A DNA stretch of 33,705 bases from Actinomycetota bacterium (GTDB taxonomy: Bacteria > Actinomycetota > Actinomycetes > Nanopelagicales > Nanopelagicaceae): NCBI GenBank assembly GCA_947451045.1, contig CANFXM010000013.1:1-33705 (forward strand). The letters run 5' to 3'. The position numbers were made by a program, and so were the translations under genes. The notes below the pieces were generated by a model. It had not been told where the DNA came from. It did no database searches and saw only the letters and a program-made list of their open reading frames with translations. Positions within the stretch are counted from its first letter, which is position 1; each line of letters starts with the position of its first letter. This document shows, one piece after another, positions 6,402-27,549 of the stretch.

Positions 6402-6440
6402 TTCATTTCCCGTCTTTCATTTTCTCGTTTACATTTCTTT

Positions 6441-6544: not shown

Positions 6545-6559
6545 TGGACCAAACTTTTA

Positions 6560-6991
6560 TTAGAAGAGGCCCGGAAATACCTCCTCAGAAACATCAGCAA
6601 AACTCTTTTCACGATCCGCTAAATATTCATTCCATGCAGTTGCGTCCCAAATTTCAACGCGAGTATTTGCACCAATAACAACGCAATCTTTTTCAAGAGC
6701 TGCATATGTGCGCAGCCCTTGTGGAATTGTTATGCGACCTTGGCGATCAGGAATTTCATCGTGTGCACCTGCATACATAACACGTTGATAATCACGTGCT
6801 GATTTCGCAGTAACTGGCGCTTGTTTTAGCGTTTCTGTAATGACAGAAAATTCATGTGATGGAAAAACGTAGAGACAACGTTCTTGTCCTTTTGTAATAA
6901 CTAAACCTGCTGCTAAATCTTCGCGAAACTTTGCAGGAAGAATGAGGCGGCCTTTTTCATCCAGACGAGGCTCGTGGGTGCCTAAAAACAT
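6560..6991 (-). CDS. mraZ: transcriptional regulator MraZ
   Basis: [24 protein letters not shown] and second SpoVT-AbrB-like domain ([13 protein letters not shown]); start trimmed from the ORF track's 7012 (TTG) to ATG at 6991. Confidence 0.95.
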
Positions 6992-7047
6992 GTGGTGCGC
7001 CCCCTTCCCCAAAGGATCGCTGAACAGAGCTTTTTCGCTCTATTCCC

Positions 7048-8769: not shown

Positions 8770-11700
8770 ACGACGAGGCTACTTCGTTCGGCGCTCCACT
8801 TTTCGTAGGCGCTACGAAGATCCCACGCACCTGTTGCTCGAATTGAAATACCTCGCGCTCCCGTGCGACGAGTATGACCACGAACTAAAAGTAGAGATGA
8901 GTTATAAAGAATATCTGCGTAATCAATTTGTACATCACTGAAAAAAGTTGAATCACTACATCCATAGCCATCATCGAGTGTAAGAAAAATTACACGTTTA
9001 CCCGAACGCACTGGTGGCGTCTGCATCGCAACCTTTACTCCAGCAACAAGTACTTCGCTCTGTGAACGCGCCTCTAATAGTTGAGATGAACGTACTGCGC
9101 CAATTGCATTGAGAAATGGGGCGTAGAACTCAAGCAAGTGATGAGTTATATCCATTCCTAAGCGCTCTACTTCGTGGCGCACTCCTTCTGCGGCGCTCAT
9201 TGCAGGTAGACCACTTGAAATAAGTGCTGGTGGTTCAAAACCTAAATTCATTTGAGCACCCGAGACTGCAAGTGCTGGAGAGCGCACCAGATCCTTTATA
9301 TGTAATAACAGATCACGCCTATGTATCTCATCGCTAGCATGTAAGGAATCAAAAGCTCCTGTCAGAATAAGAGCTTCGGTTACTGAAATAGATGCTCCTG
9401 AACGTCGTACGAAATCAGTGATATCTGTATAGGGACGGCACTGAATAATTGATTCAATCTCTGTTGCGCTAATTCCACTCACCGTGGAGAGTGGAATACG
9501 TATGGCGTACCCGTTCTCACTATTTTCAACCCTATAGACAGAATCCGAAAGATTTACATCCAAGGGCGCAAGAGTGATTCCCATTTGGCGCGCTTCATCG
9601 AGTATTAAACGTTTGGGATACATGCCTGGATCATGGGTAAGTACACCTGCGATAAATGCTGCAGGGTGATGAGTCTTCAGCCATGCCGATTGATATGTGG
9701 GTAGCGCAAATGCTGCGGCATGCGCTTTGCAAAATCCAAAGGATGCAAAAGCGCGCAATACATCCCAAATTTCATTGACGATAGCTAGTTCATATCCATG
9801 CGCTAGTGCGGCAGGAAAAAACCAATCACAAATCTCTTGTTGCCCAGAAGGATCGCCCATCCCGCGTCTTTTCTCATCGGCTGCAGCAAAAGAGATACCT
9901 GTCATCACGGAAATGATTGCGATTACTTGTTCGTGAAAGACAACAACGCCTTCAGTTTCATTGAGAATCTCGTAGAGATCGGGATGAATAATGCGCGCAC
10001 TCTCCCACCCATGTCTTGCTTTGAGAAATGGCGTAATCATGTCGCTCTTGACTGGACCTGGTCTAAAAAGTGAGATATCGATAATCAAATCTGTAAATGT
10101 TGCTGGGGCAAGTTTTCCTACAAGTTCGCGTTGTCCTGGGCTTTCGATTTGAAAAATTCCTAGCGTGCGCGTTGATTGAATCAACTCAAATGTGGCTTTG
10201 TCATCGAGTGGAACTGAATCTATGTCGACTACTTTTTCTTCAACGCGCTCTATCTCTTTGAGTGCATAAGCAATTGTTGATTGCATGCGAACTCCCAAAA
10301 TATCGAGCTTGAGTAGTCCTATCGCTTCAACATCATCTTTATCAAATTCGACCATTGGGTAGCCACTTGCATTGCGCTGCACGGACACTCGATCGTAGAG
10401 GCCCGCATCAGATAAAACGATGGCGCATGGATGCATGGCTAAATGACGCGGCAACCCATCGAGTTTTTCGGCGAGTGAAATAGTCATCGCCGTGAGAGGC
10501 GCTGAAAGATTGAGTTTTCGAAGTTCGGGTAAATTCTCTAGCGCTTGTGAAATATTTTTAGCACGTACATGAGGCATTGATTTTGCAATCAGATCTATCT
10601 CCATTGCAGAAAGCCCAAGAGCGGCCCCCGTATCGCGAATTGCGTGACGGGCTCGATACGTATCGACCATTGCAACTGTGGCACATCTAGAACTTTCGCC
10701 ATATCGCTTGAAAACTAAATCATAAATTTCTAAGCGACGATCTGATTCAACATCGATATCGATATCGGGAAGTGCCGCGCGCAGCGGCGAACAGAAGCGC
10801 TCCATCAAAAGTCCGTGACGCAGCGGATCGACTCCTGAAATTCCTAAGAGATGACAGATCAGTGAACCTGCACCGCTGCCACGAGCTGCAACTCTGATAC
10901 CGCGTTTGCGCGCCATATCTGCAATATCGGCAACGGTAAGAAAATATGACTCGTAACCAAGAGTTGCAACTGTTGCTAATTCATCATCTAAACGCTGGCG
11001 CGCTTTATGTATTGATGCGCTCTCGTTATAGCGCCAGTTGATTCCAGCAAGACTTCGCGAACGCAACAAAGAGCGCATCTCGTGCGCCGACGTTGCACCA
11101 ACAACTTCTGGTTCGGGTAAATGAATCCCACCTAAACCAATATCGCGCGCAGGAGATAACAAAGAACGCTCTGCCCACGTGCGCGTTGTCGCCAATAATT
11201 CTCGCGGAGTTCGCTCCCCCGCTGCTCTAGCAATTTCACCAGCAAGTGAAATCATTTCATCGCTCGATTTCAAAAATGCCTCGGCATTGCGCCGCTCCAG
11301 ATGGCGCTGATGCAACGGGACTAATTGTCTAGCACAATCTAAAATATCGGCTACGGGGCCATCGGCGCGATCGCGCATACGCACTGCATTAGTAACGACT
11401 GCGTCTATATCGTGATCACGGGCAAAGATAAGACTACGGGCTGCAAATGCAGTGGAGCGTGGCCCTGAACCTGCAACAAGATGAGACACGCATTCAATTG
11501 CATTATCAGCAAAGAGATCCCGCGTTGTATTGAAAATACTAAAAGCAAGATCAAATCGATGCTCTGCAATAGCGCTAGCCAGTGGTGATTGTGGGCCATG
11601 AAGTGCATAAACATTGGTGCTGTATTCACTGTATTTTTGTAATAAGTCCAGAGTCAGTACAACCTTGCGATTCTCAGAGCTCATATGTAGCGATGTCAAT

Positions 11701-11990
11701 AAACGACAAAGCGAGCGCCATCCTCCATCGCTATGGGCAAGGAGTGTGATGCGTGGTAATTCTTTTACCGAATGGCCTAGATCAATTGCGCAGTTGATTC
11801 CGATAATGGGTGCAATTCCATAATCAATACAACTTTGTGCAAAACGAATTGCCCCTGCTAATCCATCGCGATCAGTAAGTGCAAGCGCTGGCATTTCAAA
11901 TTCAGCGGCGCGAGCTACTAGGTCGCGTGGTTGTGTTGTGCCGTATTTGAGTGAATAACCACTGGCAACATTGAGATGTATAAAACTCAT
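8766..11990 (-). CDS. dnaE2: error-prone DNA polymerase III alpha subunit (DnaE2-type)
   Basis: 1074 aa; FIHLNVASGYSLKYGTTQPRDLVARAAE...LALTDRDGLAG (degenerate PHP), polymerase motifs RGSGAGSLICHLLGIS, LPDIDIDVESDRR, FHEQVIAI; overlaps dinB by 4 bp. Confidence 0.88.
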   Translation of the reverse strand: MSFIHLNVASGYSLKYGTTQPRDLVARAAEFEMPALALTDRDGLAGAIRFAQSCIDYGIAPIIGINCAIDLGHSVKELPRITLLAHSDGGWRSLCRLLTSLHMSSENRKVVLTLDLLQKYSEYSTNVYALHGPQSPLASAIAEHRFDLAFSIFNTTRDLFADNAIECVSHLVAGSGPRSTAFAARSLIFARDHDIDAVVTNAVRMRDRADGPVADILDCARQLVPLHQRHLERRNAEAFLKSSDEMISLAGEIARAAGERTPRELLATTRTWAERSLLSPARDIGLGGIHLPEPEVVGATSAHEMRSLLRSRSLAGINWRYNESASIHKARQRLDDELATVATLGYESYFLTVADIADMARKRGIRVAARGSGAGSLICHLLGISGVDPLRHGLLMERFCSPLRAALPDIDIDVESDRRLEIYDLVFKRYGESSRCATVAMVDTYRARHAIRDTGAALGLSAMEIDLIAKSMPHVRAKNISQALENLPELRKLNLSAPLTAMTISLAEKLDGLPRHLAMHPCAIVLSDAGLYDRVSVQRNASGYPMVEFDKDDVEAIGLLKLDILGVRMQSTIAYALKEIERVEEKVVDIDSVPLDDKATFELIQSTRTLGIFQIESPGQRELVGKLAPATFTDLIIDISLFRPGPVKSDMITPFLKARHGWESARIIHPDLYEILNETEGVVVFHEQVIAIISVMTGISFAAADEKRRGMGDPSGQQEICDWFFPAALAHGYELAIVNEIWDVLRAFASFGFCKAHAAAFALPTYQSAWLKTHHPAAFIAGVLTHDPGMYPKRLILDEARQMGITLAPLDVNLSDSVYRVENSENGYAIRIPLSTVSGISATEIESIIQCRPYTDITDFVRRSGASISVTEALILTGAFDSLHASDEIHRRDLLLHIKDLVRSPALAVSGAQMNLGFEPPALISSGLPAMSAAEGVRHEVERLGMDITHHLLEFYAPFLNAIGAVRSSQLLEARSQSEVLVAGVKVAMQTPPVRSGKRVIFLTLDDGYGCSDSTFFSDVQIDYADILYNSSLLLVRGHTRRTGARGISIRATGAWDLRSAYEKWSAERSSLVV

Positions 11991-12280
11991 TACAAATTTC
12001 TAATGATCCACTGACCGCTGACTTCATCGCGTTCGAGTTCAAATGTTGTAAGAGCACCTATAGGTGCAGCTTCTACTCGCCACAGCGAGCGCGCTTGATC
12101 ATCAGGGCGATACTTTCCATCGCTGACGTGATTCCACCAGCCACCTGCTTCACACCAACGTGACAAAACTGTATGAATACGAAAGCGACGACCTTTGAAA
12201 CTAAATTCAATAGGAGTTGCGCCCTCACTGGTTACATCAAGGGCTTTCGTAATTTGCGGAGTGGGCTGTGGAACTGACAT
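11990..12280 (-). CDS. small DUF6504-like protein encoded upstream of dnaE2
   Basis: ~96 aa, ...FSFKGRRFRIHTVLSRWCEAGGWWNHVSD...SLWRVEA...FELERDEVSGQWIIRNL; stop shares a base with the dnaE2 start; ATG 12280 or TTG 12301 start. Family name from recall only. Confidence 0.6.
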   Translation of the reverse strand: MSVPQPTPQITKALDVTSEGATPIEFSFKGRRFRIHTVLSRWCEAGGWWNHVSDGKYRPDDQARSLWRVEAAPIGALTTFELERDEVSGQWIIRNL

Positions 12281-12312
12281 TGCGGTAGAGCCTTTCGCCA
12301 AACTGTGGGTAT

Positions 12313-13405: not shown

Positions 13406-14152
13406 ATGGAAATCCTCGGCGCCCTCCTTGCAGGTTGCTTCATAGGAGCAGTCCTTGGTTTTATCGGGGCTGGCGGAGCAATGCTTTCCGTTCCGATACT
13501 TATTTACGGATTCAATTTCTCCCCTGCACATGCAACTACCGCAGCCCTTGCTATTGTCTTTAGCGCAGCAGTATCTGGGCTCATCTCTAAATTTCGCAGC
13601 AAAGACGTACTCATCAAGGAAGCACTCGTTATCTGGGCTTTGGGATTGGTCACAAATCTTGGTGGGTCATGGGTCGCACACCGCTTGCCCGATTCATTTA
13701 TCACAACGGGTTTTGCAATCGTCATGATTTCGGCCGCTACCTCCATGTTATTTAAATCATTAGGCGGGAATGAAAAGAAGATTCCAGTAGTAGCACTAGT
13801 CGCAATTTCATTAACCATTGGGCTTATGACGGGACTCTTTGGAATCGGTGGAGGCTTCTTGGCAATTCCAGTATTAATTCTCTTCTTTAATAACACTGCC
13901 AATAGAGCTGCAGGTACATCTTTATTTATTATTGCCCTCAATACTCTGACAGCATTTTTTGGGCATTATCGAATCTGGTCTCAAATTTCTTGGCACCTGC
14001 CAATTCTGATGTCTGTATCTGCAGTTGTTGTAGCAGGTTTTGCATCGCGCATGGGCGAACTATCAAATCCGCTACTAATGCGGAGATCTTTCGCGGTCTT
14101 GCTCTACGCCGTTTCGATTTTTACAATTATTCAAACGTGGTTGTTGAACTAA
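13406..14152 (+). CDS. TSUP (TauE/SafE) family permease
   Basis: 248 aa; FIGAGGAMLSVPILIY and repeated FGIGGGFLAIPVLILFF half-motif, multiple TM. Confidence 0.85.
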   Translation: MEILGALLAGCFIGAVLGFIGAGGAMLSVPILIYGFNFSPAHATTAALAIVFSAAVSGLISKFRSKDVLIKEALVIWALGLVTNLGGSWVAHRLPDSFITTGFAIVMISAATSMLFKSLGGNEKKIPVVALVAISLTIGLMTGLFGIGGGFLAIPVLILFFNNTANRAAGTSLFIIALNTLTAFFGHYRIWSQISWHLPILMSVSAVVVAGFASRMGELSNPLLMRRSFAVLLYAVSIFTIIQTWLLN

Positions 14153-15366
14153 CGCGCATTTTTTAGTGCGCGTGACATATAACCAGCAAAAGTCAGACAT
14201 AGGGCCGGAAATAGAATTGCAATAGGTAGATTGATTAACTGTGCCAATCCACCAATAATGCTTGGTCCGATGAAAAAGCCCATCATTCCAATCACACCAA
14301 CTCGAGCCATTGCCACAGAGGATGCAATCCCTGGAGTCTGTGAGGCAGCCAAAATAATTGCAGGAAACATTGGTCCGAGTCCAAATCCAGCCAAGGCGAA
14401 ACCGCAATCGATAATAATGAGTGCGAGTAACGGGTGAGAATGTGAAAGTGGGACAGCAGTAATAATTCCAACAGCCCAACCGATACCACCTACATAACCA
14501 CCGAGTTTTACCGTCTTCATTGGGCCAAAATAATCAAGGGCTTTGTCGCCTAGAAAGCGGCTTGTAATCATTGCAAGTGCAAAACAACCGAAGGCAGTTG
14601 CGTTCTTACCTTTTCCAAATCCCATACTGTCGCGCAATAAAATTCCGCCCCAGTCGCTAGCTGCCCCTTCTGCAACCAAGCCACTGAGCATTCCAACACC
14701 CATTCCCCACAACGGCATGACTGATTTTCCCATCAATGGAATTTTTGCTTGTGTATCTTCACCGCCACCATCGTGTTCATCGAGATCTGGAGGCAATATG
14801 AAAATAGCTGCCGGAATATAAGCAATCATGCAGACAATTCCAAGAGTTACTAAGTGAACCTTTGGCGATACATAGTGCGAAAGAATTCCACCCAAAAGAG
14901 CTGCTACAAACGCACCTGTACTCCAGAGCGCATGAAATGTAGACATCCATCGACGTTTAAGAATTTTTTCAACTACTGCAGCTTGAGTATTGACTGAAAT
15001 ATCCATACTTGAATATCCAAAACCCATAACAAAAAGTGAGGCAACAAGGAACAGGGGGTTGTGAGCAAGGCCAATACCAATGAGTCCTAGCGGCATAACA
15101 AAAATAGCAACTGATACAACTCGGCGTGAACCAAAAGTGTGAATCAATCTTCCAGCTAATTGTGCGCCACACAGAGCCCCTACGGTTCCTGAAATAAGAA
15201 CCAGACCAAGCTGAGCATTATTAATCTTGACGATATCTTTTATTTCGGGAACTCGCGCTACCCATCCCATCGAAACCAATCCCATGATTCCAAATGTTGC
15301 CCACAATGCATTTCGTGCACGTGTGCCGATTTTCGTTAATTCTTCTTGGCTATAAGTCGCGCTCAT
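14149..15366 (-). CDS. MFS transporter (paralogue A)
   Basis: ~405 aa, 12 TM-like pattern; GRLIHTFGSRRVV, RRWMSTFHALWSTGAF; start likely ATG 15366 (track start 15375 is TTG). Confidence 0.88.
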   Translation of the reverse strand: MSATYSQEELTKIGTRARNALWATFGIMGLVSMGWVARVPEIKDIVKINNAQLGLVLISGTVGALCGAQLAGRLIHTFGSRRVVSVAIFVMPLGLIGIGLAHNPLFLVASLFVMGFGYSSMDISVNTQAAVVEKILKRRWMSTFHALWSTGAFVAALLGGILSHYVSPKVHLVTLGIVCMIAYIPAAIFILPPDLDEHDGGGEDTQAKIPLMGKSVMPLWGMGVGMLSGLVAEGAASDWGGILLRDSMGFGKGKNATAFGCFALAMITSRFLGDKALDYFGPMKTVKLGGYVGGIGWAVGIITAVPLSHSHPLLALIIIDCGFALAGFGLGPMFPAIILAASQTPGIASSVAMARVGVIGMMGFFIGPSIIGGLAQLINLPIAILFPALCLTFAGYMSRALKNAR

Positions 15367-15392
15367 AGAGGGCAACGCTAACTCATAGAGGG

Positions 15393-16622
15393 CTAATTTT
15401 CTGTAGTCAGCCGCTTCACTTTGATAAATCTTGTTTGTAAAGCCGCGCCCATCATCAAAAGCACCGGAAATGCGAATGCAATTGGTAATGAAGTAAGTTG
15501 TGAAATTCCACCAATAATTGTTGGGCCAGCAAAATATGAAGCAATAGCAATAAGCCCAATGCGAGCTAATCCAACAGAGGGGGCAACTCCAGGAATCGAT
15601 GCTGCAGCTAAATTAAAAGCTGGGAAGAATGGGCCGATACCAAATCCAGCAGCACCAAAACCTATACATACGATCACCAAACTCAGCATGTGATGTGAGT
15701 GAGCTAAGGGAACTCCAACAAGAATCGAAAGTCCCCAGATTCCACCACCAAAGAGTGCTCCATATTTTACAGTCTTTACGTGGCCCCACATTTCAAAGAA
15801 CTTATCTCCTAGCAATCTGCTGACAATCATCGTCAATGAAAAAACGGTTGCTGCGGCAGCATTTGTTCCTTTACCAATATTCATATGATCTCGAAGAAGA
15901 ATTCCACTCCAGTCATATGCGCCACCTTCGGGAACCAGCGCACAGATAAGACCAAAACCTATCCCCCACAAAATCATCGCTTCTTTACCTCTAAATGAAA
16001 CTTTTGAAGAAGTTTGACTTCCTTCTTCACCACCATGTCCATCGAGCTCTGGTGGTAGGAGATAACGAGTTATATATAAGTAAGAAAGAAAACTCAGCGC
16101 TGACATCACTAATAAATTAACTTTTGGTGAGACAAAATTTGCTACAAGGCCGCCAACAAGGGCTGCACAAAAAGCGCCAATACTCCAAAGGCCATGGAAG
16201 GTAGACATCCATCGCCCCTGAGTGTGCTGCTCAATTGCAATTGCTTGACTATTTAGCGCGACATCCATAAATGCAACGCTGAATCCACAGAAAAATAATC
16301 CGAGGGCAAGCGTTGGGACATTATGTGCAATTCCCATAATGCTCACACCCAGTGGCAAAGTAACGCCAGCTATTCGAACGACAATTTTTGATGAAAACAT
16401 ATGTACTACTCGACCAGAGAGTTGTGCGCCAGGTACCGCACCAAAGGTGCTCGCAAGTAATAAGAGTCCAAATTGACCATCACTCAAACCCAATGAAGTT
16501 TTTATTTCAGGAATGCGTGGAATCCAAGCCATGCCCGTAATACCTAGTACGAAGAAACTTGCCCAGACTGCATTTCGGCCATGGATCCCGTATTGATAAT
16601 TAGTGAGTGCCTTAGAGGACAT
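15393..16622 (-). CDS. MFS transporter (paralogue B)
   Basis: 409 aa; GRVVHMFSSKIVV, GRWMSTFHGLWSIGAF; colinear similarity with the adjacent MFS ORF. Confidence 0.88.
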   Translation of the reverse strand: MSSKALTNYQYGIHGRNAVWASFFVLGITGMAWIPRIPEIKTSLGLSDGQFGLLLLASTFGAVPGAQLSGRVVHMFSSKIVVRIAGVTLPLGVSIMGIAHNVPTLALGLFFCGFSVAFMDVALNSQAIAIEQHTQGRWMSTFHGLWSIGAFCAALVGGLVANFVSPKVNLLVMSALSFLSYLYITRYLLPPELDGHGGEEGSQTSSKVSFRGKEAMILWGIGFGLICALVPEGGAYDWSGILLRDHMNIGKGTNAAAATVFSLTMIVSRLLGDKFFEMWGHVKTVKYGALFGGGIWGLSILVGVPLAHSHHMLSLVIVCIGFGAAGFGIGPFFPAFNLAAASIPGVAPSVGLARIGLIAIASYFAGPTIIGGISQLTSLPIAFAFPVLLMMGAALQTRFIKVKRLTTEN

Positions 16623-16645: not shown

Positions 16646-17140
16646 GTGCACATGGATGGAATTCTCGAAAAAGCGGCCGTGAGACGCTTCCTCGATGCCG
16701 CAAAATCACTGGGTATCAATGGCGAAATAAAAATCCTTTCCGACTCAGCCCGCACTGCTGTCGATGCAGCAAATGCACTCGGTATCGAAGTAGGACAGAT
16801 TGCAGCATCTCTCATATTCAAACTTCCCTCCGGTAATCCGCTGCTTGTCGTTACAAGTGGTCGACATAAAGTTGATACGGCACTTGTTGCGAAAAATCTT
16901 GGAATTGAAAAACTTGATCGCGTCGATGCGGATTACGTAAAAGAAAACAGTGGTTATTCAATCGGTGGTGTGAGCCCATTGGGGTGGGTTACAAAGCCAG
17001 AAATAATCCTTATTGATCAGGCACTCAATGAATATGAAACCGTATGGGCAGCAGCGGGACATCCACACGCGGTTTACCCAACTTCTTTTTCTGAATTACT
17101 TGAATGCACAGGAGCGCAACCTATGGTTGTAGGTGAATAA
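16646..17140 (+). CDS. YbaK/EbsC-family aminoacyl-tRNA deacylase
   Basis: AASLIFKLPSGNPLLVVTSGRHKVDTALVAKNLG, YSIGGVSPLGW motif; start GTG 16646 or ATG 16652. Confidence 0.85.
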   Translation: MHMDGILEKAAVRRFLDAAKSLGINGEIKILSDSARTAVDAANALGIEVGQIAASLIFKLPSGNPLLVVTSGRHKVDTALVAKNLGIEKLDRVDADYVKENSGYSIGGVSPLGWVTKPEIILIDQALNEYETVWAAAGHPHAVYPTSFSELLECTGAQPMVVGE

Positions 17141-17141
17141 A

Positions 17142-17942
17142 ATGACACTTTCAACGCGAAGTTATAACTCGCCAACATCTGAAGATGTTCTTGTCTTAGT
17201 TCACGGACTTGGCTCGGCTGCGACTGCATGGAAGCCGATAATTCCTGCGCTATCTGAAAAGTTCAATGTCATCACTGTTGATCTGCCAGGACATGGTGAA
17301 TCGACATTTGATCCGGCCCAAGCGATGGATCCGCAATCTCTTGCTCTCTTAGTTCGTGATTCCATAAAAACTAATCACGGAATAGATGAATTTCATTTGG
17401 TAGGAAATTCATTAGGAGGATGGATTTCACTCGAGCTCGCATCACTTGCTCGCCAGAATGTAAAAAGTGTTACGGGGCTTGCTCCTGCAGGACTTTGGTT
17501 AGCGCCATATACGGCTCGCTATCCGGGAAGCGCTGTTGCAAATATTTTGGCTCGTGGACTTAAGGTTGCAGCCCCATACATTATCGATTACGACTTAGTT
17601 AGAAAGGTGGGCTTTGCCGATGTCAGCCCACGATGGAAAGAACTTTCAAAAGAAATTTGTTTGGATGCAACGCTGGCGATGGCTACATCTGCCGGTTACT
17701 ACCCTGCGTGGGATGGAATGTTGAAAAAGAGATTTGATTCACAGATCAGTTCTGACATACCGGTCACTATTATTTTTGGAGATAGCGATAAAACTTTGCC
17801 CGCATTAGATTGCCAAGAAAAAACCCTTGCGCCAGCGCATGCCAAATGGATTGAATTTGAATCGTGCGGACATGCTCCTATGTGGGATTGGCCGCAACAA
17901 TGCATTGAAAAGATAATTGAAACTACAGGTATCGCGAAATGA
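17142..17942 (+). CDS. alpha/beta-fold hydrolase
   Basis: LVHGLGSAATAWKPIIP, nucleophile elbow GNSLGG, acid FGDSDKTLP, His in SCGHAPMWDWP; translationally coupled to neighbours on both sides. Confidence 0.88.
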   Translation: MTLSTRSYNSPTSEDVLVLVHGLGSAATAWKPIIPALSEKFNVITVDLPGHGESTFDPAQAMDPQSLALLVRDSIKTNHGIDEFHLVGNSLGGWISLELASLARQNVKSVTGLAPAGLWLAPYTARYPGSAVANILARGLKVAAPYIIDYDLVRKVGFADVSPRWKELSKEICLDATLAMATSAGYYPAWDGMLKKRFDSQISSDIPVTIIFGDSDKTLPALDCQEKTLAPAHAKWIEFESCGHAPMWDWPQQCIEKIIETTGIAK

Positions 17943-18598
17943 TTGTTGCTGCCTACTTTTGGCAGATCGAAAGGAAAAGAATTCCATTTGCTATTTCTCG
18001 AATGGCACTCAATAGACGGGCTGTTAGAAATTTTCCTGGAGTAAGTTTTTCAAAGTTACTGGGATGTGGCACTGGTGAACGCTTTACCCCGAGTGATGCT
18101 GATCCTTTGCGATGGGGAATTTTGGTAGCAATTGATGAAAACCAAATTGAGGCATTTGATAACAGCCGTTTTATTTCACAATGGAGAAAGAATTCGCACT
18201 CTGAATTTCGAGCACTGCTCTCCCCTATTTCTTCGCACGGGCAATGGTCTAAGAAAGAACCATTCACTGTTTCTACAAAACCTAACGACGGAGCGATTGT
18301 TGCAATTACTAGAGCGCGCATCTCCTTTCTCGGAAATTTTCGTTTCTGGAAAGCCGTTCCACCTGTAACTACTAGCCTTCACAATTCACCAGGTTTGATT
18401 TCTGCTATTGGTATCGGCGAGGCACCTATTGGATTGCAAGGAACTTTCTCGATCTGGGAATCCGCACAGGCACTTCGCGAATTTGCCTATAAAGGTGAGG
18501 CACATACCCAAGTAATTGCCGATACCAAGAAATATCAGTGGTATTCAGAGGAACTCTTCGCTCGCTTCGCTGTTCTGGAGTTACGCGGCTGCTTATAA
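17939..18598 (+). CDS. CrtA-like (spheroidene monooxygenase / carotenoid 2-hydroxylase family) protein
   Basis: MALNRRAVRNFPGVSFSKLLGCGTGERFTPSDAD..., SPISSHGQWSKKEPF, ITRARISFLGNFRFWKAVP, GIGEAPIGLQGTFSIW, WYSEELFARF resemble the CrtA family; ATGA overlap with the hydrolase. Confidence 0.82.
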   Translation: MIVAAYFWQIERKRIPFAISRMALNRRAVRNFPGVSFSKLLGCGTGERFTPSDADPLRWGILVAIDENQIEAFDNSRFISQWRKNSHSEFRALLSPISSHGQWSKKEPFTVSTKPNDGAIVAITRARISFLGNFRFWKAVPPVTTSLHNSPGLISAIGIGEAPIGLQGTFSIWESAQALREFAYKGEAHTQVIADTKKYQWYSEELFARFAVLELRGCL

Positions 18599-18616
18599 GT
18601 AGGGCAGAATTGCACC

Positions 18617-19420
18617 ATGTCGCTTCGCCACTATTCACCTCGCGGTAATAGGCGACGCGGAATAAATCCAAAGGCGCAAGGTTTGCTTGTAGGAATTCTT
18701 GGAATTGCGATATTTCAACAGATTGTCTATCCGTTAGTTCATGGCGAAACTCTTCGAGTACTCACTATTTCTACTGTGTATTGCGGGGCTATAGCGATGT
18801 CACTACATGCGCTCTTAGCCTTTGGTGGTAAATACGCATTTAGATACTTATCGGTGACATTGATTTATGCCTACATAATGGAAGAAATTGGAATTCATAC
18901 AGGGTGGCCATTCGGGCAATATTCCTATGATGCTTCGCTAGGACCAAAACTTGCAGGAGTCTCACTAGTCGTTCCTTTTGCTTGGGTAATGATGGCGCAT
19001 CCACTTTTGATTGCCTCTCGAAGAGTCGGCAAAAGTTGGGTTTTTCTTTACGGTGGAATTGCATTGATGGCATGGGACTTATTTTTAGATCCGCAGATGG
19101 TTAATGCCGGTCGGTGGAGTTGGACTTTCACAGGATCGCATGTTCCTTTCGAACGCGAAATTCCATTATCAAATGCATTTGGCTGGCTTCTAGCTGGCAT
19201 GGGACTGATGGGTCTTCTGCACCAAATACTTCCCCGTGAACTTAGAAAAGTAAGCGCAGGTTTTGGGGTTGTTGATTTTTATTTAGCATGGAGTTGGTTC
19301 TCGGGCGTTGTTGCTAATTTATTTTTCTTTCATCGACCAGGTATTGCATTCTTTGGTGGTCTCATTTATGGATTGGTTCTTGCACCGTATGTATTTTCGC
19401 GCTGGCTCGGTAGACCATAG
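18617..19420 (+). CDS. cruF: carotenoid biosynthesis protein, CruF-like 1',2'-hydratase family (DUF422)
   Basis: EEIGIHTGWPFGQYSYDASLGPKLAGVSLVVPFAWVMMAHP, MAWDLFLDPQMVNAGRWSW, PLSNAFGWLL. Confidence 0.85.
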   Translation: MSLRHYSPRGNRRRGINPKAQGLLVGILGIAIFQQIVYPLVHGETLRVLTISTVYCGAIAMSLHALLAFGGKYAFRYLSVTLIYAYIMEEIGIHTGWPFGQYSYDASLGPKLAGVSLVVPFAWVMMAHPLLIASRRVGKSWVFLYGGIALMAWDLFLDPQMVNAGRWSWTFTGSHVPFEREIPLSNAFGWLLAGMGLMGLLHQILPRELRKVSAGFGVVDFYLAWSWFSGVVANLFFFHRPGIAFFGGLIYGLVLAPYVFSRWLGRP

Positions 19421-19430
19421 ATATAGTTGA

Positions 19431-20489
19431 ATGATTTCAGTAATTCTAAATTCAATCTTGTTGCTTTTCGTTTTGATCAACGCATTTACCATGCCAAAAC
19501 TGGCGCAATCCATTGCAGTATCGAAGTCAGTTGCTGTTCATATTCCAATGCGCAATGAAGCAAAAAATGTACTTGAACTAGTCGAATCTCTTAGAAGCCA
19601 GAATTATGCGGGCCAACTCCATTTCTATATCCTCGATGATAATTCTACAGACCAGACTTATTCTTTACTTCAATCAGCAACCAAAGACGATCCTCGCTTC
19701 ACACTTCTAGTCGGTAGTGAGCCACCAAACGGGTGGATTGGGAAAACATGGGCGCTACAGCAAATCTTTGAAGCAAGTAGTGAGGAAGTAATCATCAGTC
19801 TTGATGCAGATGTTCGACTCACTACTGATGCAATTACTCGTGGCGTATCGACTCTGTCGGAATATAAACTCAATTTTCTTTCTGTTTATCCTTCTCAAAT
19901 AACCACAACATTTGGGGAGAGAATGATTCAGCCACTCTTGCAGTGGTCTTGGCTTTCAACTTTGTTGTTGCGATTCACAATGCGCTCTACTCGATCTGCA
20001 TTTGCTGTAGCAAATGGCCAATTTTTTATTGTCCAACGCCAAGTAATGACCGGATATGCGAATGTGAAAAAAGAAGTTTTAGACGATATGGCTCTTGCTC
20101 GAACTTTGCTAACTAGTAAATTCAGAGGCAGTGTTGTCAACGGTGGAGCTATTGCCCAGTGCCAAATGTATGCCTCATTTTCTGAGCTTCGTTCTGGTTA
20201 CGCCAAATCATTATGGAAAGCATTTGGCTCGGTCATTGGAAGTCTTATTGCAATTATTTTTCTATTTATCTCCGGTGTTCTACCAATCATCCTGGTTCTG
20301 ACGGGATCGCCATGGGGATGGATTGCCCTTGAGCTTGTCGTACTCTCGCGAATCATTAGTGCCTATATCTCCGACGGGGCAATGATGGATTCACTTCTTC
20401 ATCCAATCTCGTCGCTCTTGCTTATCTATCTCATTATTTATTCTTGGTCAGTGCGCAAAAATGTGCAATGGAAGGGTCGCACACTATGA
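19431..20489 (+). CDS. family 2 glycosyltransferase, CruG-like (carotenoid glycosyltransferase candidate)
   Basis: VAVHIPMRNEAKNV, LDDNSTDQT, SLDADVRLT, DDMALAR motifs plus C-terminal TM region; placed between cruF and crtD homologues. Confidence 0.8.
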   Translation: MISVILNSILLLFVLINAFTMPKLAQSIAVSKSVAVHIPMRNEAKNVLELVESLRSQNYAGQLHFYILDDNSTDQTYSLLQSATKDDPRFTLLVGSEPPNGWIGKTWALQQIFEASSEEVIISLDADVRLTTDAITRGVSTLSEYKLNFLSVYPSQITTTFGERMIQPLLQWSWLSTLLLRFTMRSTRSAFAVANGQFFIVQRQVMTGYANVKKEVLDDMALARTLLTSKFRGSVVNGGAIAQCQMYASFSELRSGYAKSLWKAFGSVIGSLIAIIFLFISGVLPIILVLTGSPWGWIALELVVLSRIISAYISDGAMMDSLLHPISSLLLIYLIIYSWSVRKNVQWKGRTL

Positions 20490-22006
20490 AAATTTCTATC
20501 GTTGGCGCTGGTGTTGGAGGAATGATTGCTGCTGCACGATTAGCAAAAGCCGGTCATTCGGTAACCGTGTACGAAGGAAGTGATCGAGTCGGTGGAAAAT
20601 TACGTACCGAATGGATTGGGCGATACGCATTCGATACTGGCCCATCATTGCTAACACTTCCTGCTGTTTACCGAGACTTCTTTCTTAAAACGGGAAAGCA
20701 TATGGGCCAGGAGATGGAAGTAGTCTCGGTTAATCCTTCTTTTGATTACCGATTTGCCGATGGCAGTAATGTGAAGTTTGCGAATCTCTCACGTCATGAA
20801 ACTTTGAAATCAATTGCAGAATCTTTTTCCCAAGAAAGTGCCCAGCAATGGGATTCACTAATGAGCGTTGCAGAGAAGATGTGGGATATCTCAAGAGAAC
20901 CTTTTATTGAATCAGAGCTCAGATCACCCCTTTCCCTATTGAAGAGACCCACTTTCTTGAAAGATTTATTTACTATCAAACCTTGGCAATCACTTCGTCA
21001 ATTAGCCAATGACGAACTCACCGATATTCGACTCCGTTACATTTTGGATCGCTACGCAACATATAGCGGTTCAGATCCTCGTAAGGCTCCTGCTGTGCTT
21101 TCCTCTATTGCATTTGTAGAGGAAACATTTGGCGCTTGGCATATCAAAGGTGGCCTTGGAACTATGGCTGAGGCTATCTATGCGCGCTGTGTCAAACATG
21201 GTGTTCATTTTGAGCTATCAACTCCAGTTCAGGAAATTATTCTCAACCAAGGCAAAGTCACTGGAATTATTCTTTCTAATGGTCAACGTGTTGAATCTGA
21301 TGCAGTTGTGAGTAATGCCGATGCATCATTTACGTACAACACTCTTATCAAGAGTAACTCCCGCAGAGTGAAGAAAATCCGACGAAATCTTGCTAAATCT
21401 GAAGCATCCTTAGCTGGCTTCTCGTTACTACTTGGACTTCGCCCTAGTGATGAACCGATGCTTGAGCACCACACCATTTTATTTCCTCAAGATTACGACA
21501 AAGAGTTTGATTCGATTTTTACTGAAAGAAAACCTGTTTCTGAACCCACAATCTATCTATGCGCTCCCCACGATCCAACAATGGTCAAAACGCAAAACTC
21601 TGTCGGGCTTTTCGTATTAGTCAATGCCCCAGTTCACTCACTTGATCCAACCCAAGGCTGGAATTGGAGTGATGAAAAATTCAATAATGAATACGCACAC
21701 CAAATTATTGATCAGATTGAATCACGCGGTATTTCAATACGAGATCGATTAGAAACAATGACTATAAGAACGCCACTGCAATTACAAGTAAGTGTCAACG
21801 CACCTGGTGGCTCAATCTATGGAAGTTCGAGTAATGGCGCCCGAGCTGCATTTTTGCGAGCAAAGAATCGTTCATCTATAAAAGGTTTGTACTTGGTGGG
21901 AGGTTCAGCCCATCCTGGAGGTGGCTTACCTCTTGTTGGTATTAGTGGTGATTTAGTTGCTAGCGCAATTGGGAGCGCGAAAAACGTACAACCAAATAAA
22001 GGCTAA
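20486..22006 (+). CDS. CrtI/CrtD-family carotenoid desaturase (candidate 3,4-desaturase)
   Basis: MKISIVGAGVGGMIAAARLAKAGHSVTVYEGSDRVGGKL, FDTGPSLLTLP, C-terminal GGSAHPGGGLPLVGISG; ATGA overlap with GT2 gene; start trimmed to ATG 20486. Confidence 0.88.
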   Translation: MKISIVGAGVGGMIAAARLAKAGHSVTVYEGSDRVGGKLRTEWIGRYAFDTGPSLLTLPAVYRDFFLKTGKHMGQEMEVVSVNPSFDYRFADGSNVKFANLSRHETLKSIAESFSQESAQQWDSLMSVAEKMWDISREPFIESELRSPLSLLKRPTFLKDLFTIKPWQSLRQLANDELTDIRLRYILDRYATYSGSDPRKAPAVLSSIAFVEETFGAWHIKGGLGTMAEAIYARCVKHGVHFELSTPVQEIILNQGKVTGIILSNGQRVESDAVVSNADASFTYNTLIKSNSRRVKKIRRNLAKSEASLAGFSLLLGLRPSDEPMLEHHTILFPQDYDKEFDSIFTERKPVSEPTIYLCAPHDPTMVKTQNSVGLFVLVNAPVHSLDPTQGWNWSDEKFNNEYAHQIIDQIESRGISIRDRLETMTIRTPLQLQVSVNAPGGSIYGSSSNGARAAFLRAKNRSSIKGLYLVGGSAHPGGGLPLVGISGDLVASAIGSAKNVQPNKG

Positions 22007-23457: not shown

Positions 23458-24543
23458 GTGATGGATGAGCAAAAAGCGACACTAGCCAAGGTCCGCGAGA
23501 GCATTGAAATAGAGCTTTCCGATTTTCTTAGCAAGCAGAGCGCATACCTCGAATCAATCTCTAGCGATTTAGCGCCGGTTGCACACTCTCTTTCTTCTTT
23601 CTTGCTCGATGGAGGAAAAAGGCTTCGCCCCCTCTTTGCATATAGTGCATTTGTTGGCGCAAGTGGAGTCCCAGATAAAAATGTGATCCGAGCAATTTCA
23701 AGTCTCGAACTTTTACAAGCATGCGCACTCATCCATGACGATCTCATGGATGGTTCAGATACGCGACGAGGAAAACCATCTATACATAGACACTTCGAAA
23801 CGATTCATCAACGTGAAGAGATGGAAGGTTTCGCAGAGCGTTACGGAATGGCTGCGGCGGTATTGCTGGGAGATTTAGCTCTTGTTCTCTCTGATCAAAT
23901 GCTCAACTCTGCAGGATTAGATTCAGCGCAGATGCACTCTGTACTTCCTGTTCATGATGAAATGCGCGTCGAACTCATGGCAGGACAATTCCTCGATATT
24001 CATGAACAAACTCAGAAAAATACAAATGTGGAACGCTCGCTTACCATTGCACGTTATAAATCTGGTAAATACACAATCGAACGTCCACTTCATATTGGGT
24101 CCTCCCTTGCAATCACAGATGTGAAATCACGCAAGAATATTGATCAGGCATATTCTGCTTATGGTCTTCCACTAGGTGAGGCTTTTCAACTTCGCGATGA
24201 TTTACTCGGTGTCTTTGGCAATCCTGAAGTAACCGGTAAACCTGCGGGAGATGATTTACGAGAAGGAAAGCGCACCGTCTTAGTGGCGATGACTCTAGAT
24301 AATTCTTCCCCCGCGGCCACTGCTCGATTTATGAGCTCATTTGGTTCATCGCAATTGAGCCCCACTGATATTCAAGCGCTACGCGAAATCATTATTGAAT
24401 CTGGAGCGCGCACTCGTGTTGAAGAACTCATCGATTCACGAACTTCTAGCGCGCTAGATGCGCTGAGTCAAGGTGGAATTACGCCTTCAGGACAAGCTCT
24501 ACTAACAGAGCTTGCAGCTTTATCGACCCGTAGGAGTATGTAG
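23458..24543 (+). CDS. crtE: polyprenyl (geranylgeranyl) diphosphate synthase
   Basis: GGKRLRPLFAY, LIHDDLMDGSDTRRG (DDxxD), LRDDLLGVFGNPEVTGKPAGDDLREGKRT; followed by crtI, crtB. Confidence 0.92.
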   Translation: MMDEQKATLAKVRESIEIELSDFLSKQSAYLESISSDLAPVAHSLSSFLLDGGKRLRPLFAYSAFVGASGVPDKNVIRAISSLELLQACALIHDDLMDGSDTRRGKPSIHRHFETIHQREEMEGFAERYGMAAAVLLGDLALVLSDQMLNSAGLDSAQMHSVLPVHDEMRVELMAGQFLDIHEQTQKNTNVERSLTIARYKSGKYTIERPLHIGSSLAITDVKSRKNIDQAYSAYGLPLGEAFQLRDDLLGVFGNPEVTGKPAGDDLREGKRTVLVAMTLDNSSPAATARFMSSFGSSQLSPTDIQALREIIIESGARTRVEELIDSRTSSALDALSQGGITPSGQALLTELAALSTRRSM

Positions 24544-24548
24544 AAATA

Positions 24549-26033
24549 ATGAGTGCGCGCGTAAAAGGCCCAACGAATCATGTGGTTGTAGTTGGCGCAG
24601 GACTTGCTGGCTTGAGTGCTGCTCTTCGATTAGCAGGAGCTGGTCGCAAAGTAACTGTCATTGAACGCGAATCAGTACCTGGCGGACGAAATGGTTTATT
24701 GAAAAAAGATGGCTACTCATTTGATACTGGGCCTTCGGTTTTAACGATGCCTTCATTGATTGAAGATGCGTTCAACAGCGTTGGTGAAAATATGAAAGAT
24801 TGGTTAGAACTAACCACTGTTTCTCCCTTGTATCGTGCATTTTATGCTGATGGATCACAACTTGATGTTCATGCAAATACCCAAGCGATGGAAGCTGAAA
24901 TTGCTGAAAAAATCAGCCCGAGCGAAGCAGCTGGTTACGCTCGATACGTAGATTTCGTAACAAAGTTATACAAGTATGAAATGAATGATTTTATTGATAG
25001 AAATATCGATAGTCCTCTCAATCTTCTAACACCAAATCTAGCTCGACTCATTGCCCTAGGTGGTTTTCGCAAACTATCTCCCAAGGTAAATCAATTTATG
25101 AAAGATCCTAGATTGCAAAAAGTTTATTCTTTCCAAGCCATGTATGCGGGTGTTAGCCCACAACAAGCGTTAGCAATTTATGCCGTTATCGCATATATGG
25201 ATTCAGTCAATGGCGTCTTCTTTCCTAAGGGAGGAATGCATGCAGTTCCCCGTGCACTGGCGGGTGCTGCGCAAAAACATGGCGTTGAATTCAAATACAA
25301 CACAACAGTTACTGGTTTGGAAATTGTCAATGGTCGCGCCAAAGCGGTAACAACTGATACCGGTGAGCGCATCGAATGCGACGTCGTCGTTCTCAATCCA
25401 GACTTACCTGTGATGTGGCGCGAACTTCTTGGCAAGACTCCCCCATCAATCAAACGACTCAAATATTCGCCCTCATGCGTCACTCTTTTAGTTGGCTCAT
25501 CAAAGAAATATGACCACATCGCTCATCACAATATTCATTTTGGTGAATCGTGGGATGGTGTTTTTGATGAACTTATAAACAAAAAAGTACTTATGACTGA
25601 TCCCAGCGTCCTGGTTACAGTCCCCACTCACGATGATCCGGATTTAGCGCCTCCTGGAAAAGAGTCGTACTACGTTCTCTTTCCAACTCCCAATCTTGAT
25701 GCTGATATCGATTGGAAAGTTCAAGCAAAGCCCTATAGAGATCAAATGATTAGAACACTTGAAGCGCGCGGTTACACAGGATTTGGTGATGCAATTGAAG
25801 TTGAACAAATGACCACTCCCCTAGATTGGAAGAATCAAGGATTGGAGCGCGGTGCACCATTTGCCAGCGCACATACTTTTTTCCAAACAGGGCCATTTAG
25901 ACCTCGCAATTTAGCTGCTGGGTTTGAAAATGTGGTCTTCGCTGGTTCAGGTACTCAACCTGGCGTTGGCGTACCTATGGTTTTAATTTCAGGACGTTTA
26001 GCAGCAGAGCGAATCGTAGGTCCGGTGAAATAA
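24549..26033 (+). CDS. crtI: phytoene desaturase (CrtI)
   Basis: VVVVGAGLAGLSAALRLAGAGRKVTVIERESVPGGRNG, FDTGPSVLTMP, C-terminal GSGTQPGVGVPMVLISGRLAAERI. Confidence 0.94.
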   Translation: MSARVKGPTNHVVVVGAGLAGLSAALRLAGAGRKVTVIERESVPGGRNGLLKKDGYSFDTGPSVLTMPSLIEDAFNSVGENMKDWLELTTVSPLYRAFYADGSQLDVHANTQAMEAEIAEKISPSEAAGYARYVDFVTKLYKYEMNDFIDRNIDSPLNLLTPNLARLIALGGFRKLSPKVNQFMKDPRLQKVYSFQAMYAGVSPQQALAIYAVIAYMDSVNGVFFPKGGMHAVPRALAGAAQKHGVEFKYNTTVTGLEIVNGRAKAVTTDTGERIECDVVVLNPDLPVMWRELLGKTPPSIKRLKYSPSCVTLLVGSSKKYDHIAHHNIHFGESWDGVFDELINKKVLMTDPSVLVTVPTHDDPDLAPPGKESYYVLFPTPNLDADIDWKVQAKPYRDQMIRTLEARGYTGFGDAIEVEQMTTPLDWKNQGLERGAPFASAHTFFQTGPFRPRNLAAGFENVVFAGSGTQPGVGVPMVLISGRLAAERIVGPVK

Positions 26034-26933
26034 GTGGATGAACTTACTGCTGCTGGAATTACTGATCCGACTCTGAGGGCGTCATATGAAGAGTGCAAAC
26101 GTCTTAATTCGCTACACGGTAAGACATATTATTTAGCAACACTTTTGCTTCCCAAAGAGAAGCGACCATTCGTACATGCTCTTTATGGATTTGCACGTTA
26201 TGCAGATGAAATTGTGGATGACCTTGCATCAGAGCTCACTATCCAAGAAAAGAGTGACTTACTTACCCAATGGGGCGAAAAAGTTCTACAAGGTCTTTCA
26301 TCAGGAGATAGTAACGATGTGGTTGGGCGCGCTCTTATAGACACAGTTACAAAGTTTAAGATTCCCCATGAGCATTTTGTTGCTTTTCTTCATTCCATGA
26401 AAATGGACCTCTCCGTGACTTCTTATGCGAATTACGAAGCACTGATGGAATACGTTTATGGCTCTGCTGCGGTAATTGGATTAGAGATGGTTCCTATTCT
26501 TGGCCCACTCTCTGATGCCGCCTTTGAGCCTGCAAAGAAACTCGGCATCGCATTTCAGTTGGCTAACTTTATTCGTGATGTCAACGAAGATTTAGATCGC
26601 GGGCGAATCTATTTGCCCCTTGATGAACTTGCAGAGTTCGGTGTAAATAAGGAAATGCTAGCGAGAAGAATTCTCACACCGCAGATTGTCAGCGCCTTGA
26701 AATTTCAGATTGCACGAGTTCGTCAATTACAGAAAGAGGCAACACCAGGAATTCAAGAATTAGCACCTTCCAGTCGGCCATGCATCGAGGCTGCTAGTGA
26801 ACTTTATTGCGGCATTGTTGATGAAGTCGAGAAGATTGATTTTCAAATATTTAATAAGCGCGCAAAGACTTCAACGGGAAGGCGTTTGAGAGTTGCGTCC
26901 AAAGCTTATGTCAAAGCACTTCAAGCTCGATAG
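26034..26933 (+). CDS. crtB: phytoene synthase (CrtB)
   Basis: HGKTYYLATLLLPKEKRPFVHALYGFARYADEIVDD, GIAFQLANFIRDVNEDLDRGRIYLP; GTG start. Confidence 0.95.
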   Translation: MDELTAAGITDPTLRASYEECKRLNSLHGKTYYLATLLLPKEKRPFVHALYGFARYADEIVDDLASELTIQEKSDLLTQWGEKVLQGLSSGDSNDVVGRALIDTVTKFKIPHEHFVAFLHSMKMDLSVTSYANYEALMEYVYGSAAVIGLEMVPILGPLSDAAFEPAKKLGIAFQLANFIRDVNEDLDRGRIYLPLDELAEFGVNKEMLARRILTPQIVSALKFQIARVRQLQKEATPGIQELAPSSRPCIEAASELYCGIVDEVEKIDFQIFNKRAKTSTGRRLRVASKAYVKALQAR

Positions 26934-27220
26934 CGCTTTCCTAAGAAAACCCACAGCGATAAAACGCTGAGCAAAAGTGAGAAGCCAAAAAATAAATCTT
27001 CTACTGGGGCTGCTGCAATCCTCAATCCAATAATTGATTCGGACTTATACATCACAATATCTCGAGATGTAAGCCACCAGTTTGTGAGTAGCTGAAAGGG
27101 CAGAATGATGGAATAAGAAGTCCAAAAAGCTTTCCGAAAAATTAATGCAATCTTTGTTACTTTAGTATCAAAGATAATTGCTAGAGCAAATGCAAGAAAA
27201 GCTACTTGGGTATAATTCAA
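26921..27220 (-). CDS. crtYd: lycopene cyclase subunit/domain, CrtYd-type
   Basis: TSYSIILPFQLLTNWWLTSRDIVMY, GLRIAAAPVEDLFFGFSLLL; 3-TM small protein. Confidence 0.9.
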   Translation of the reverse strand: MNYTQVAFLAFALAIIFDTKVTKIALIFRKAFWTSYSIILPFQLLTNWWLTSRDIVMYKSESIIGLRIAAAPVEDLFFGFSLLLSVLSLWVFLGKRYRA

Positions 27221-27549
27221 TGCTCATCTCCAATAATCCAATGTCTTTTAACATTTCTCACTGCTTCAAGCGTCATAATTCCTGCAATAGGAATAATGAG
27301 AAAAAAGAGAAATTCTTCAAGTGGAATATTCCATGGTCCGAAAATTCCTAGAATTTTCTGATGATCGAAATACCAATCTCCTCGAGAAATTGCATATGCA
27401 TCCCAAATAATAAAAAGAATTGCAATAGGAATAATGCTGAGCAGTACTCTTTTGAATCGCGCTAAGACTCGAACACGTAGTGCAATTTCTAGCCAAAAGG
27501 AGCCACATATAGTGAAGGCGAGCATCGCCATGTAACTCCACTTAAGCAT
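27217..27549 (-). CDS. crtYc: lycopene cyclase subunit/domain, CrtYc-type
   Basis: LFIIWDAYAISRGDWYFDHQKILGIFGPWNIPLEEFLFFLIIPI; overlaps crtYd start. Confidence 0.92.
   Translation of the reverse strand: MLKWSYMAMLAFTICGSFWLEIALRVRVLARFKRVLLSIIPIAILFIIWDAYAISRGDWYFDHQKILGIFGPWNIPLEEFLFFLIIPIAGIMTLEAVRNVKRHWIIGDEH

What the first reader, a model, noticed from the sequence alone, without database searches (positions are those of the whole stretch)
17142..22006. Predicted myxol-glycoside-like carotenoid tailoring operon: crtA-like + cruF-like + GT2 + crtD-like
Seen: four adjacent plus-strand ORFs resembling CrtA, CruF, a membrane GT2 (CruG-like) and a second CrtI/CrtD-type desaturase, apart from crtE/I/B and crtYc/Yd but in the same locus. 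Established: CruF hydrates the psi-end, CruG glycosylates the 2'-OH, CrtD introduces 3,4-unsaturation, and a crtA-related enzyme acts as a carotenoid 2-hydroxylase in flavobacterial myxol biosynthesis. Inference: with gamma-carotene from CrtYc/Yd this set could make a myxol-type 2'-glycoside, with the CrtA homologue as the 2'-hydroxylase (or a 2'-ketolase). No beta-carotene 15,15'-dioxygenase (blh) is visible here, so the locus looks dedicated to an intact membrane or antenna carotenoid rather than retinal.
Basis: partly seen in the sequence, partly recalled or inferred. Interest (0 to 1): 0.72.

Follow-up and report, generated by a model that had tools for sequence, protein, structure and literature searches.

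The report
Carotenoid tailoring operon in freshwater actinobacterium
A small freshwater actinobacterium carries a conserved set of genes predicted to build a sugar-decorated orange-red pigment with one closed ring, possibly a membrane protectant or a light-gathering helper for its light-driven proton pump; the enzymes are known types and the product has not been measured.

Summary
CrtA-like (17939-18598), CruF-like, CruG-like GT2 and CrtD-like genes lie head to tail with 4-bp overlaps or 10-18 bp gaps, upstream of crtE-I-B and crtYd/Yc. An unmentioned alpha/beta hydrolase fills 17133-17942. The order crtA-cruF-GT2-crtD is kept in 21 of 21 loci of the genome's family, and CrtA in 256 of 296 family genomes, so this is a fixed trait. 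The CrtA homologue is a genuine family member with a predicted heme-protein fold, but scores below the spheroidene-monooxygenase cut-off and groups with actinobacterial homologues, not purple-bacterial ketolases. Hydroxylase versus ketolase is open. No CrtZ/CrtR or CrtW family gene was found, so the product is better called a deoxymyxol-type (salinixanthin-like, without 4-keto) glycoside; 1'- versus 2'-O-glycosylation is undecided. No blh or RPE65 dioxygenase was found in the 96%-complete genome, yet it has an actinorhodopsin with the glycine that opens the carotenoid-binding window. New detail: crtYc/Yd occur either beside blh (one clade) or beside crtB (as here). As I recall, Dwulit-Smith et al. 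2018 already predicted a complex-carotenoid branch in all acI clades. Verdict: real, mostly expected, chemically unproven.

The parts
16646..17140 (+). YbaK-like aminoacyl-tRNA deacylase; first gene of the probable transcription unit, probably not part of the pathway
   Evidence: PF04073 E 5e-22; overlaps the next ORF; homologue found in 18 of 21 family loci
17133..17942 (+). alpha/beta hydrolase, role unknown; overlaps crtA by 4 bp
   Evidence: PF12697/PF00561; found in only 11 of 21 family loci, so not core
17939..18598 (+). CrtA-like carotenoid C-2 oxygenase (hydroxylase or ketolase)
   Evidence: NF045923 E 4.5e-47, below its cut-off; alignment A1 with purple-bacterial CrtA; tree; predicted fold pLDDT 92.8, resembles heme aldoxime dehydratase; His189 invariant in both alignments
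18617..19420 (+). CruF-like carotenoid 1',2'-hydratase
   Evidence: PF04240 109 bits over cut-off; TIGR03460 97/154.7; in 21 of 21 family loci
19431..20489 (+). membrane GT2 glycosyltransferase, CruG-like
   Evidence: PF00535 E 7e-19; best NCBIfam CruG NF045692 E 3e-36, 125/600 bits; DD, DAD and DD motifs; in 21 of 21 family loci
20486..22006 (+). CrtD-like 1-hydroxycarotenoid 3,4-desaturase
   Evidence: NF045637 333/580 bits, TIGR02734 313/238 bits; higher on the CrtD than on the CrtI-family model, the reverse of the window's CrtI
23458..24543 (+). CrtE-like prenyl diphosphate synthase
   Evidence: polyprenyl synthase models; conserved position
24549..26033 (+). CrtI phytoene desaturase
   Evidence: TIGR02734 532/238 bits
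26034..26933 (+). CrtB phytoene synthase
   Evidence: phytoene/squalene synthase models; conserved position
26921..27220 (-). CrtYd lycopene cyclase subunit (crtB-linked kind)
   Evidence: PF18916, TIGR03462 over cut-off; groups by position
27217..27549 (-). CrtYc lycopene cyclase subunit (crtB-linked kind)
   Evidence: PF18916, TIGR03462 over cut-off; groups by position

Best explanation
The locus encodes a C40 pathway to a glycosylated monocyclic xanthophyll of the deoxymyxol/salinixanthin type. CrtE, CrtB and CrtI make lycopene; the CrtYc/CrtYd pair closes one end to give gamma-carotene. At the open end, the CruF homologue adds water (1'-OH), the CrtD homologue introduces the 3',4' double bond (1'-hydroxytorulene), the CrtA homologue, a heme protein, oxygenates C-2' (hydroxyl somewhat more likely than keto), and the GT2 enzyme attaches a sugar at the 1'- or 2'-oxygen. 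The product probably serves as a membrane pigment for photoprotection and could be the antenna of the actinorhodopsin encoded elsewhere in the genome. Shown by computation: gene content, order, conservation, family membership, absence of detectable blh. Inferred: every reaction, their order, the product and its role.
For: Families of all genes. Tight gene packing. Order crtA-cruF-GT2-crtD in 21 of 21 family loci; CrtA in 256 of 296 family genomes and 102 of 108 high-quality ones. CrtA alignment with purple-bacterial CrtA, predicted fold and heme-protein fold match, invariant His189; CrtA of purple bacteria holds a five-coordinate heme (PMC10604819). crtB-linked crtYc/Yd in this genome. CrtY, CruF, CrtD and CrtA-OH of Nonlabens spongiae together make deoxymyxol in E. 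coli (PMC11855829). No BCD, RPE65, PF04116 or PF00487 gene found in the genome. Rhodopsin present with Gly149 aligned to xanthorhodopsin Gly156.
Against: CrtA, CruF, GT2 and CrtD all score under the NCBIfam equivalog cut-offs, so the exact reactions are extrapolated. Similar clusters in Streptosporangiales show no crtYc/Yd-type cyclase within the 9-kb flanks (other cyclase types not sought), so an acyclic substrate is possible. In most blh-bearing relatives examined the cyclase is not in this locus. Four P450s and a partial CrtO-like protein could modify the ring. Beta-carotene, without a ring hydroxyl, does not bind the xanthorhodopsin Kin4B8 (PMC12308411), which weakens the antenna idea for an unmodified ring.
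Confidence: 0.58

Rival explanations
1. CrtA works as a 2-ketolase (two hydroxylations at one carbon), so the product is a 2'-keto, 1'-O-glycosylated monocyclic carotenoid rather than a deoxymyxol glycoside.
For: Homology to spheroidene monooxygenase. The literature describes the ketolase as arising from a hydroxylase, and Rubrivivax CrtA as a Bacteroidetes-derived enzyme that ketolates (PMC2889829; PMC10604819), so the switch is easy.
Against: The window protein lies outside the three purple-bacterial sequences, among actinobacterial homologues, with Bacteroidota homologues also on that side of the tree; Bacteroidetes CrtA is described as a hydroxylase. The tree cannot settle the point: no characterised CrtA-OH sequence was in it and the root was set on the purple rows.
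Confidence: 0.3
2. The tailoring enzymes act on acyclic lycopene at one or both ends, and the cyclase serves a separate purpose.
For: Streptosporangiales and Solirubrobacterales clusters with CrtA, CruF, CrtD and GT2 show no crtYc/Yd within the flanks. In 9 of 11 blh-bearing relatives examined, crtYc/Yd is found only beside blh.
Against: In this genome crtYd/Yc sits beside crtB, as in 10 of 12 blh-less genomes examined (own genome included), and every one of 23 genomes tested keeps a cyclase. Without blh there is no other obvious use for a cyclase.
Confidence: 0.18
3. The true product is a C50 carotenoid (bacterioruberin-like), the CruF homologue being a bisanhydrobacterioruberin hydratase.
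For: The best NCBIfam hit of the CruF homologue is the archaeal-type TIGR03460. One UbiA-family protein of the genome is unassigned (L004).
Against: No lycopene elongase in the locus; two of three UbiA proteins are heme O synthase and MenA, and the third scores only 26 of 205 bits on the prenyltransferase model PRK12875, which I take to be lycopene-elongase-like. Nonlabens CruF acts in a C40 pathway (PMC11855829).
Confidence: 0.05

Closest known systems
Myxol pathway of Nonlabens / Flavobacterium P99-3 (CrtY, CruF, CrtD, CrtA-OH, CrtZ)
   Same: Same functional set for the psi end: CruF-type hydratase, CrtD desaturase, CrtA-related C-2 oxygenase (PMC11855829).
   Different: Here the cyclase is the CrtYc/CrtYd pair, no CrtZ-type hydroxylase was found, a GT2 glycosyltransferase is added, and the CrtA groups with actinobacterial homologues.
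Salinixanthin and its form without the 4-keto group (Salinibacter, Rhodothermus)
   Same: Monocyclic C40 glycoside with hydroxylated and non-hydroxylated forms; salinixanthin is the antenna of xanthorhodopsin (PMC5822342). The detailed structure (1'-glycosyloxy, 2'-hydroxy, 3',4'-didehydro) is from my own knowledge.
   Different: No clear 4-ketolase or acyltransferase identified here. Rhodothermus reportedly lacks recognisable CrtC/CruF homologues, so the enzymes differ.
Cyanobacterial myxoxanthophyll pathway (CruF, CruG, CrtD-type desaturase)
   Same: CruF hydratase and CruG-like GT2; own knowledge that CruG glycosylates the 2'-OH.
   Different: GT2 reaches 125 of 600 bits on the CruG model; the C-3',4' desaturase model TIGR02733 gives only 65 of 550 bits.
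Spheroidenone pathway of purple bacteria (CrtC, CrtD, CrtF, CrtA)
   Same: CrtA and CrtD homologues act on the psi end.
   Different: CruF in place of CrtC, no CrtF in the window, a cyclase present, CrtA outside the purple group.
acI 'complex carotenoid' branch predicted by Dwulit-Smith et al. 2018 (AEM 84:e01678-18)
   Same: Same lineage and, by my memory of the abstract, a secondary carotenoid branch in all acI clades.
   Different: The paper could not be read here, so whether it named these genes and this product is unverified.

Membership tests
CrtA family (spheroidene monooxygenase and relatives) | full-length sequence similarity to CrtA | tested here: met
   NF045923 is the only NCBIfam hit, E 4.5e-47 over residues 14-217; alignment with purple-bacterial CrtA
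Spheroidene monooxygenase (equivalog) | score over the curated cut-off of NF045923 (300 bits) | tested here: not met
   160 bits; Roseobacter litoralis CrtA reaches 370
CrtA family | five-coordinate heme in the active site | tested here: inconclusive
   fold resembles heme aldoxime dehydratase, TM 0.60, and one His is invariant; heme binding itself not testable
CrtA-OH carotenoid 2-hydroxylase | hydroxyl rather than keto product at C-2 | not testable with these tools
   needs expression; the tree separates it from purple ketolases but holds no characterised CrtA-OH
CruF 1',2'-hydratase | PF04240 membrane protein over cut-off | tested here: met
   109 bits, cut-off 25
CruF equivalogs (archaeal, gamma-carotene type) | over curated NCBIfam cut-offs | tested here: not met
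   97/154.7, 61.5/300, 46.6/400 bits
CruG 2'-O-glycosyltransferase | over cut-off of NF045692 | tested here: not met
   125 of 600 bits, though it is the best hit
CrtD 3,4-desaturase | CrtI-superfamily protein scoring higher on CrtD than on the CrtI-family model | tested here: met
   NF045637 333 bits over TIGR02734 313 bits; the window CrtI shows the reverse; the CrtD equivalog cut-off of 580 is not reached
Myxol pathway | beta-ring 3-hydroxylase (CrtZ or CrtR type) | tested here: not met
   no PF04116 and no PF00487 match in the 96%-complete genome; P450 substitutes not excluded
Retinal-producing carotenoid locus | blh-type or RPE65-type dioxygenase | tested here: not met
   (RPE65 only a 12-bit fragment with a stop, under cut-off); about 4% of the genome may be missing

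The most novel reading that the evidence does not exclude
In this dominant freshwater lineage two lycopene cyclases have been split by job: a blh-linked clade makes beta-carotene for retinal, and crtB-linked pairs act as a monocyclase feeding a deoxymyxol- or keto-type glycoside that is the native antenna of actinorhodopsin. Lineages such as this one kept the antenna branch and lost, or never had, retinal synthesis, relying on retinal from neighbours.
Probability: 0.22. Interest if true: 0.68.

Novelty: new member of a known kind. Interest (0 to 1): 0.4.

Why it matters
By the literature, acI actinobacteria are the most abundant bacteria in most freshwater lakes. Their tailored carotenoid appears not to have been identified, at least in the papers readable here. 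A concrete product class and a testable gene set would make the pigment, and the question whether actinorhodopsin uses a carotenoid antenna, accessible to heterologous expression. The common pattern of opsin without a known retinal gene but with a conserved tailoring operon also bears on whether the opsin works with imported retinal, or partly as a lipid scramblase as proposed in PMC12805836.

Tried and rejected
Sequence search of CrtA against the PDB found no relative. Lycopene elongase as an explanation of the unassigned UbiA protein: a plasmid search gave one unannotated Streptomyces hit, no support. Fatty-acid hydroxylase and desaturase families as ring-modifying enzymes: no match. A CrtO ketolase: only a contig-end fragment with 54 of 1000 bits, beside a Bax-inhibitor-like gene and transporters, no carotenoid genes. 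The alpha/beta hydrolase as a core pathway gene: rejected because it is missing in about half of the family loci. Absence of blh from the window as evidence by itself: rejected, since blh-bearing relatives carry it elsewhere. Sigma-70 promoter and terminator scans gave no more sites than shuffles. That the crtB-linked cyclases form one clade was neither shown nor rejected (p-AU 0.31). Dwulit-Smith 2018 is not in the library.
Full report
What is there. The window is contig 13 of a 1.39-Mb, 73-contig genome, 95.8% complete. On the plus strand lie a YbaK-like gene (16646-17140), an alpha/beta hydrolase (17133-17942), a CrtA-like gene (17939-18598), a CruF-like gene (18617-19420), a GT2 gene (19431-20489) and a CrtD-like gene (20486-22006), followed by two minus-strand genes (a CDP-alcohol phosphatidyltransferase, and one that reads as MetF), then crtE, crtI, crtB, and crtYd/crtYc on the minus strand. 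Overlaps of 4 bp and gaps of 10-18 bp suggest one transcription unit for the plus-strand genes; no promoter or terminator signal beyond chance was found.

Is it more than chance? Yes. I took stretches from 21 relatives of the same family. All 21 carry CrtA, CruF, GT2 and CrtD in this order; the longer ones continue with crtE, crtI and crtB. The CrtA homologue occurs in 256 of 296 family genomes and in 102 of 108 high-quality ones. Median identity to the window proteins is 59% (CrtA), 59% (CruF), 46% (GT2) and 63% (CrtD). The alpha/beta hydrolase is found in only 11 of 21.

The CrtA homologue. Its only NCBIfam match is spheroidene monooxygenase, at 160 bits against a cut-off of 300; a purple-bacterial protein reaches 370. 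It aligns over its length with purple-bacterial CrtA. AlphaFold2 gives a confident model (pLDDT 92.8) of what looks like two ferredoxin-like repeats; among PDB matches the best TM-scores, about 0.60, are aldoxime dehydratases, which are heme enzymes (own knowledge). Purple-bacterial CrtA is reported to hold a five-coordinate heme (PMC10604819). His189 is the only histidine of the window protein that is invariant in both alignments, so it is my candidate for the heme ligand. In a 106-row quick tree the window protein sits with its family in a supported group with Geodermatophilaceae and Frankia, inside a wider, mainly actinobacterial group, away from three purple-bacterial sequences. The tree was rooted on those rows and contains no characterised CrtA-OH, so it places the protein but does not tell hydroxylase from ketolase.

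Wider setting. A scan of genome contigs with a CrtA alignment returned the best 80 loci. In 22 of these the CrtA gene lies with crtB and GT2, mostly also with CruF and CrtI/D genes: Streptosporangiales, Solirubrobacterales and two further actinobacterial MAGs. Many of them also hold PlsX- and PlsY-like genes, which hints at acylation there; the acI loci do not. In 50 of the 80 loci, mainly Bacteroidota, no other gene of the set was seen within 9 kb.

Two cyclase positions. All 23 genomes tested have crtYc/Yd. In the 11 that carry blh, a crtYc/Yd pair lies right beside it; two of them (G179, G237) have a second pair beside crtB. Of the 12 without blh, this genome included, 10 have the pair beside crtB and two have it unlinked. 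A tree of the joined subunits makes the blh-linked pairs one group (support 96/87); the crtB-linked pairs are not shown to be one group, nor is that rejected (p-AU 0.31). The genomes are related to each other, so the counts of 10 of 12 and 11 of 11 are not independent events.

Retinal and rhodopsin. No BCD and no RPE65 match over cut-off was found in this genome. A rhodopsin is present; its Gly149 aligns with Gly156 of xanthorhodopsin, the residue that makes room for the carotenoid (PMC8113403). In the family, 231 of 296 genomes have a rhodopsin and 138 a BCD. Among high-quality genomes the counts are 86 and 51 of 108, so at least 35 have rhodopsin without a detected BCD. Dependence on outside retinal is already described for acI clade C (PMC12422013).

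Product. Nonlabens CrtY, CruF, CrtD and CrtA-OH together make deoxymyxol in E. coli, and CrtZ is needed for myxol (PMC11855829). No CrtZ/CrtR or CrtW family gene was found here, so deoxymyxol-type is the better prediction, with a sugar added by the GT2 enzyme. Rhodothermus makes a glycosylated, acylated relative lacking the 4-keto group (PMC5822342), so such a molecule is chemically ordinary. Four P450s and a partial CrtO-like protein keep ring modification possible. A bare ring is a problem for the antenna idea: beta-carotene does not bind Kin4B8 (PMC12308411), although binding rules for actinorhodopsin may differ.

Novelty. Every enzyme type is known, and Dwulit-Smith et al. 2018 (as I recall its abstract; not readable here) already predicted a complex-carotenoid branch in all acI clades. 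I file it as a new member of a known kind with moderate interest.

Noticed in passing
window 26921-27549; L145, L150 (G179); L149 and contig 12 of G237: crtYc/Yd pairs occur either beside blh or beside crtB; two genomes carry both kinds, and the blh-linked ones form one supported group.
   Followed up: partly
L004 30-2259 (G000 contig 68): A DUF2867/NmrA-like protein sits tail to tail with an unassigned UbiA-type prenyltransferase; a sequence-similar SDR/HpnA-like protein adjoins the carotenoid cluster of Nonomuraea gerenzanensis (L042).
   Followed up: partly
L042, L049, L051, L053 and other Streptosporangiales loci: PlsX- and PlsY-like acyltransferase genes lie inside the CrtA-CruF-CrtD-GT2 clusters, suggesting an acylated carotenoid glycoside there.
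   Followed up: partly
L041 8881-9666 (Deinococcus taeanensis plasmid): A CrtA homologue annotated as hypothetical protein, with no annotated carotenoid genes nearby.
   Followed up: no
Bacteroidota loci among L052-L125: In 50 of the 80 fetched loci, mainly Bacteroidota, the CrtA homologue has none of the other searched carotenoid genes within 9 kb.
   Followed up: no
G043 contig 2, 125453-126244: A blh homologue with six in-frame stops, apparently a decaying gene.
   Followed up: no
window 7576-12301: A DinB-like polymerase gene, a 1074-aa DNA polymerase III alpha-like gene and a small ORF follow each other on the minus strand, reminiscent of a DnaE2/ImuB mutagenesis cassette (by eye).
   Followed up: no
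window 359-7012: Minus-strand genes that read as murF, murE, ftsI, an FtsL-like ORF, rsmH and mraZ: part of a division and cell-wall cluster (by eye).
   Followed up: no
window 14149-16622: Two adjacent minus-strand MFS-type transporters of 408 and 409 aa that look like a tandem duplication (by eye).
   Followed up: no
G000 contig 12, 33888-34913 (L175 5889-6914): FAD protein cut by the contig end whose only NCBIfam match is CrtO at 54 of 1000 bits; could be a ring ketolase or an unrelated oxidoreductase.
   Followed up: partly
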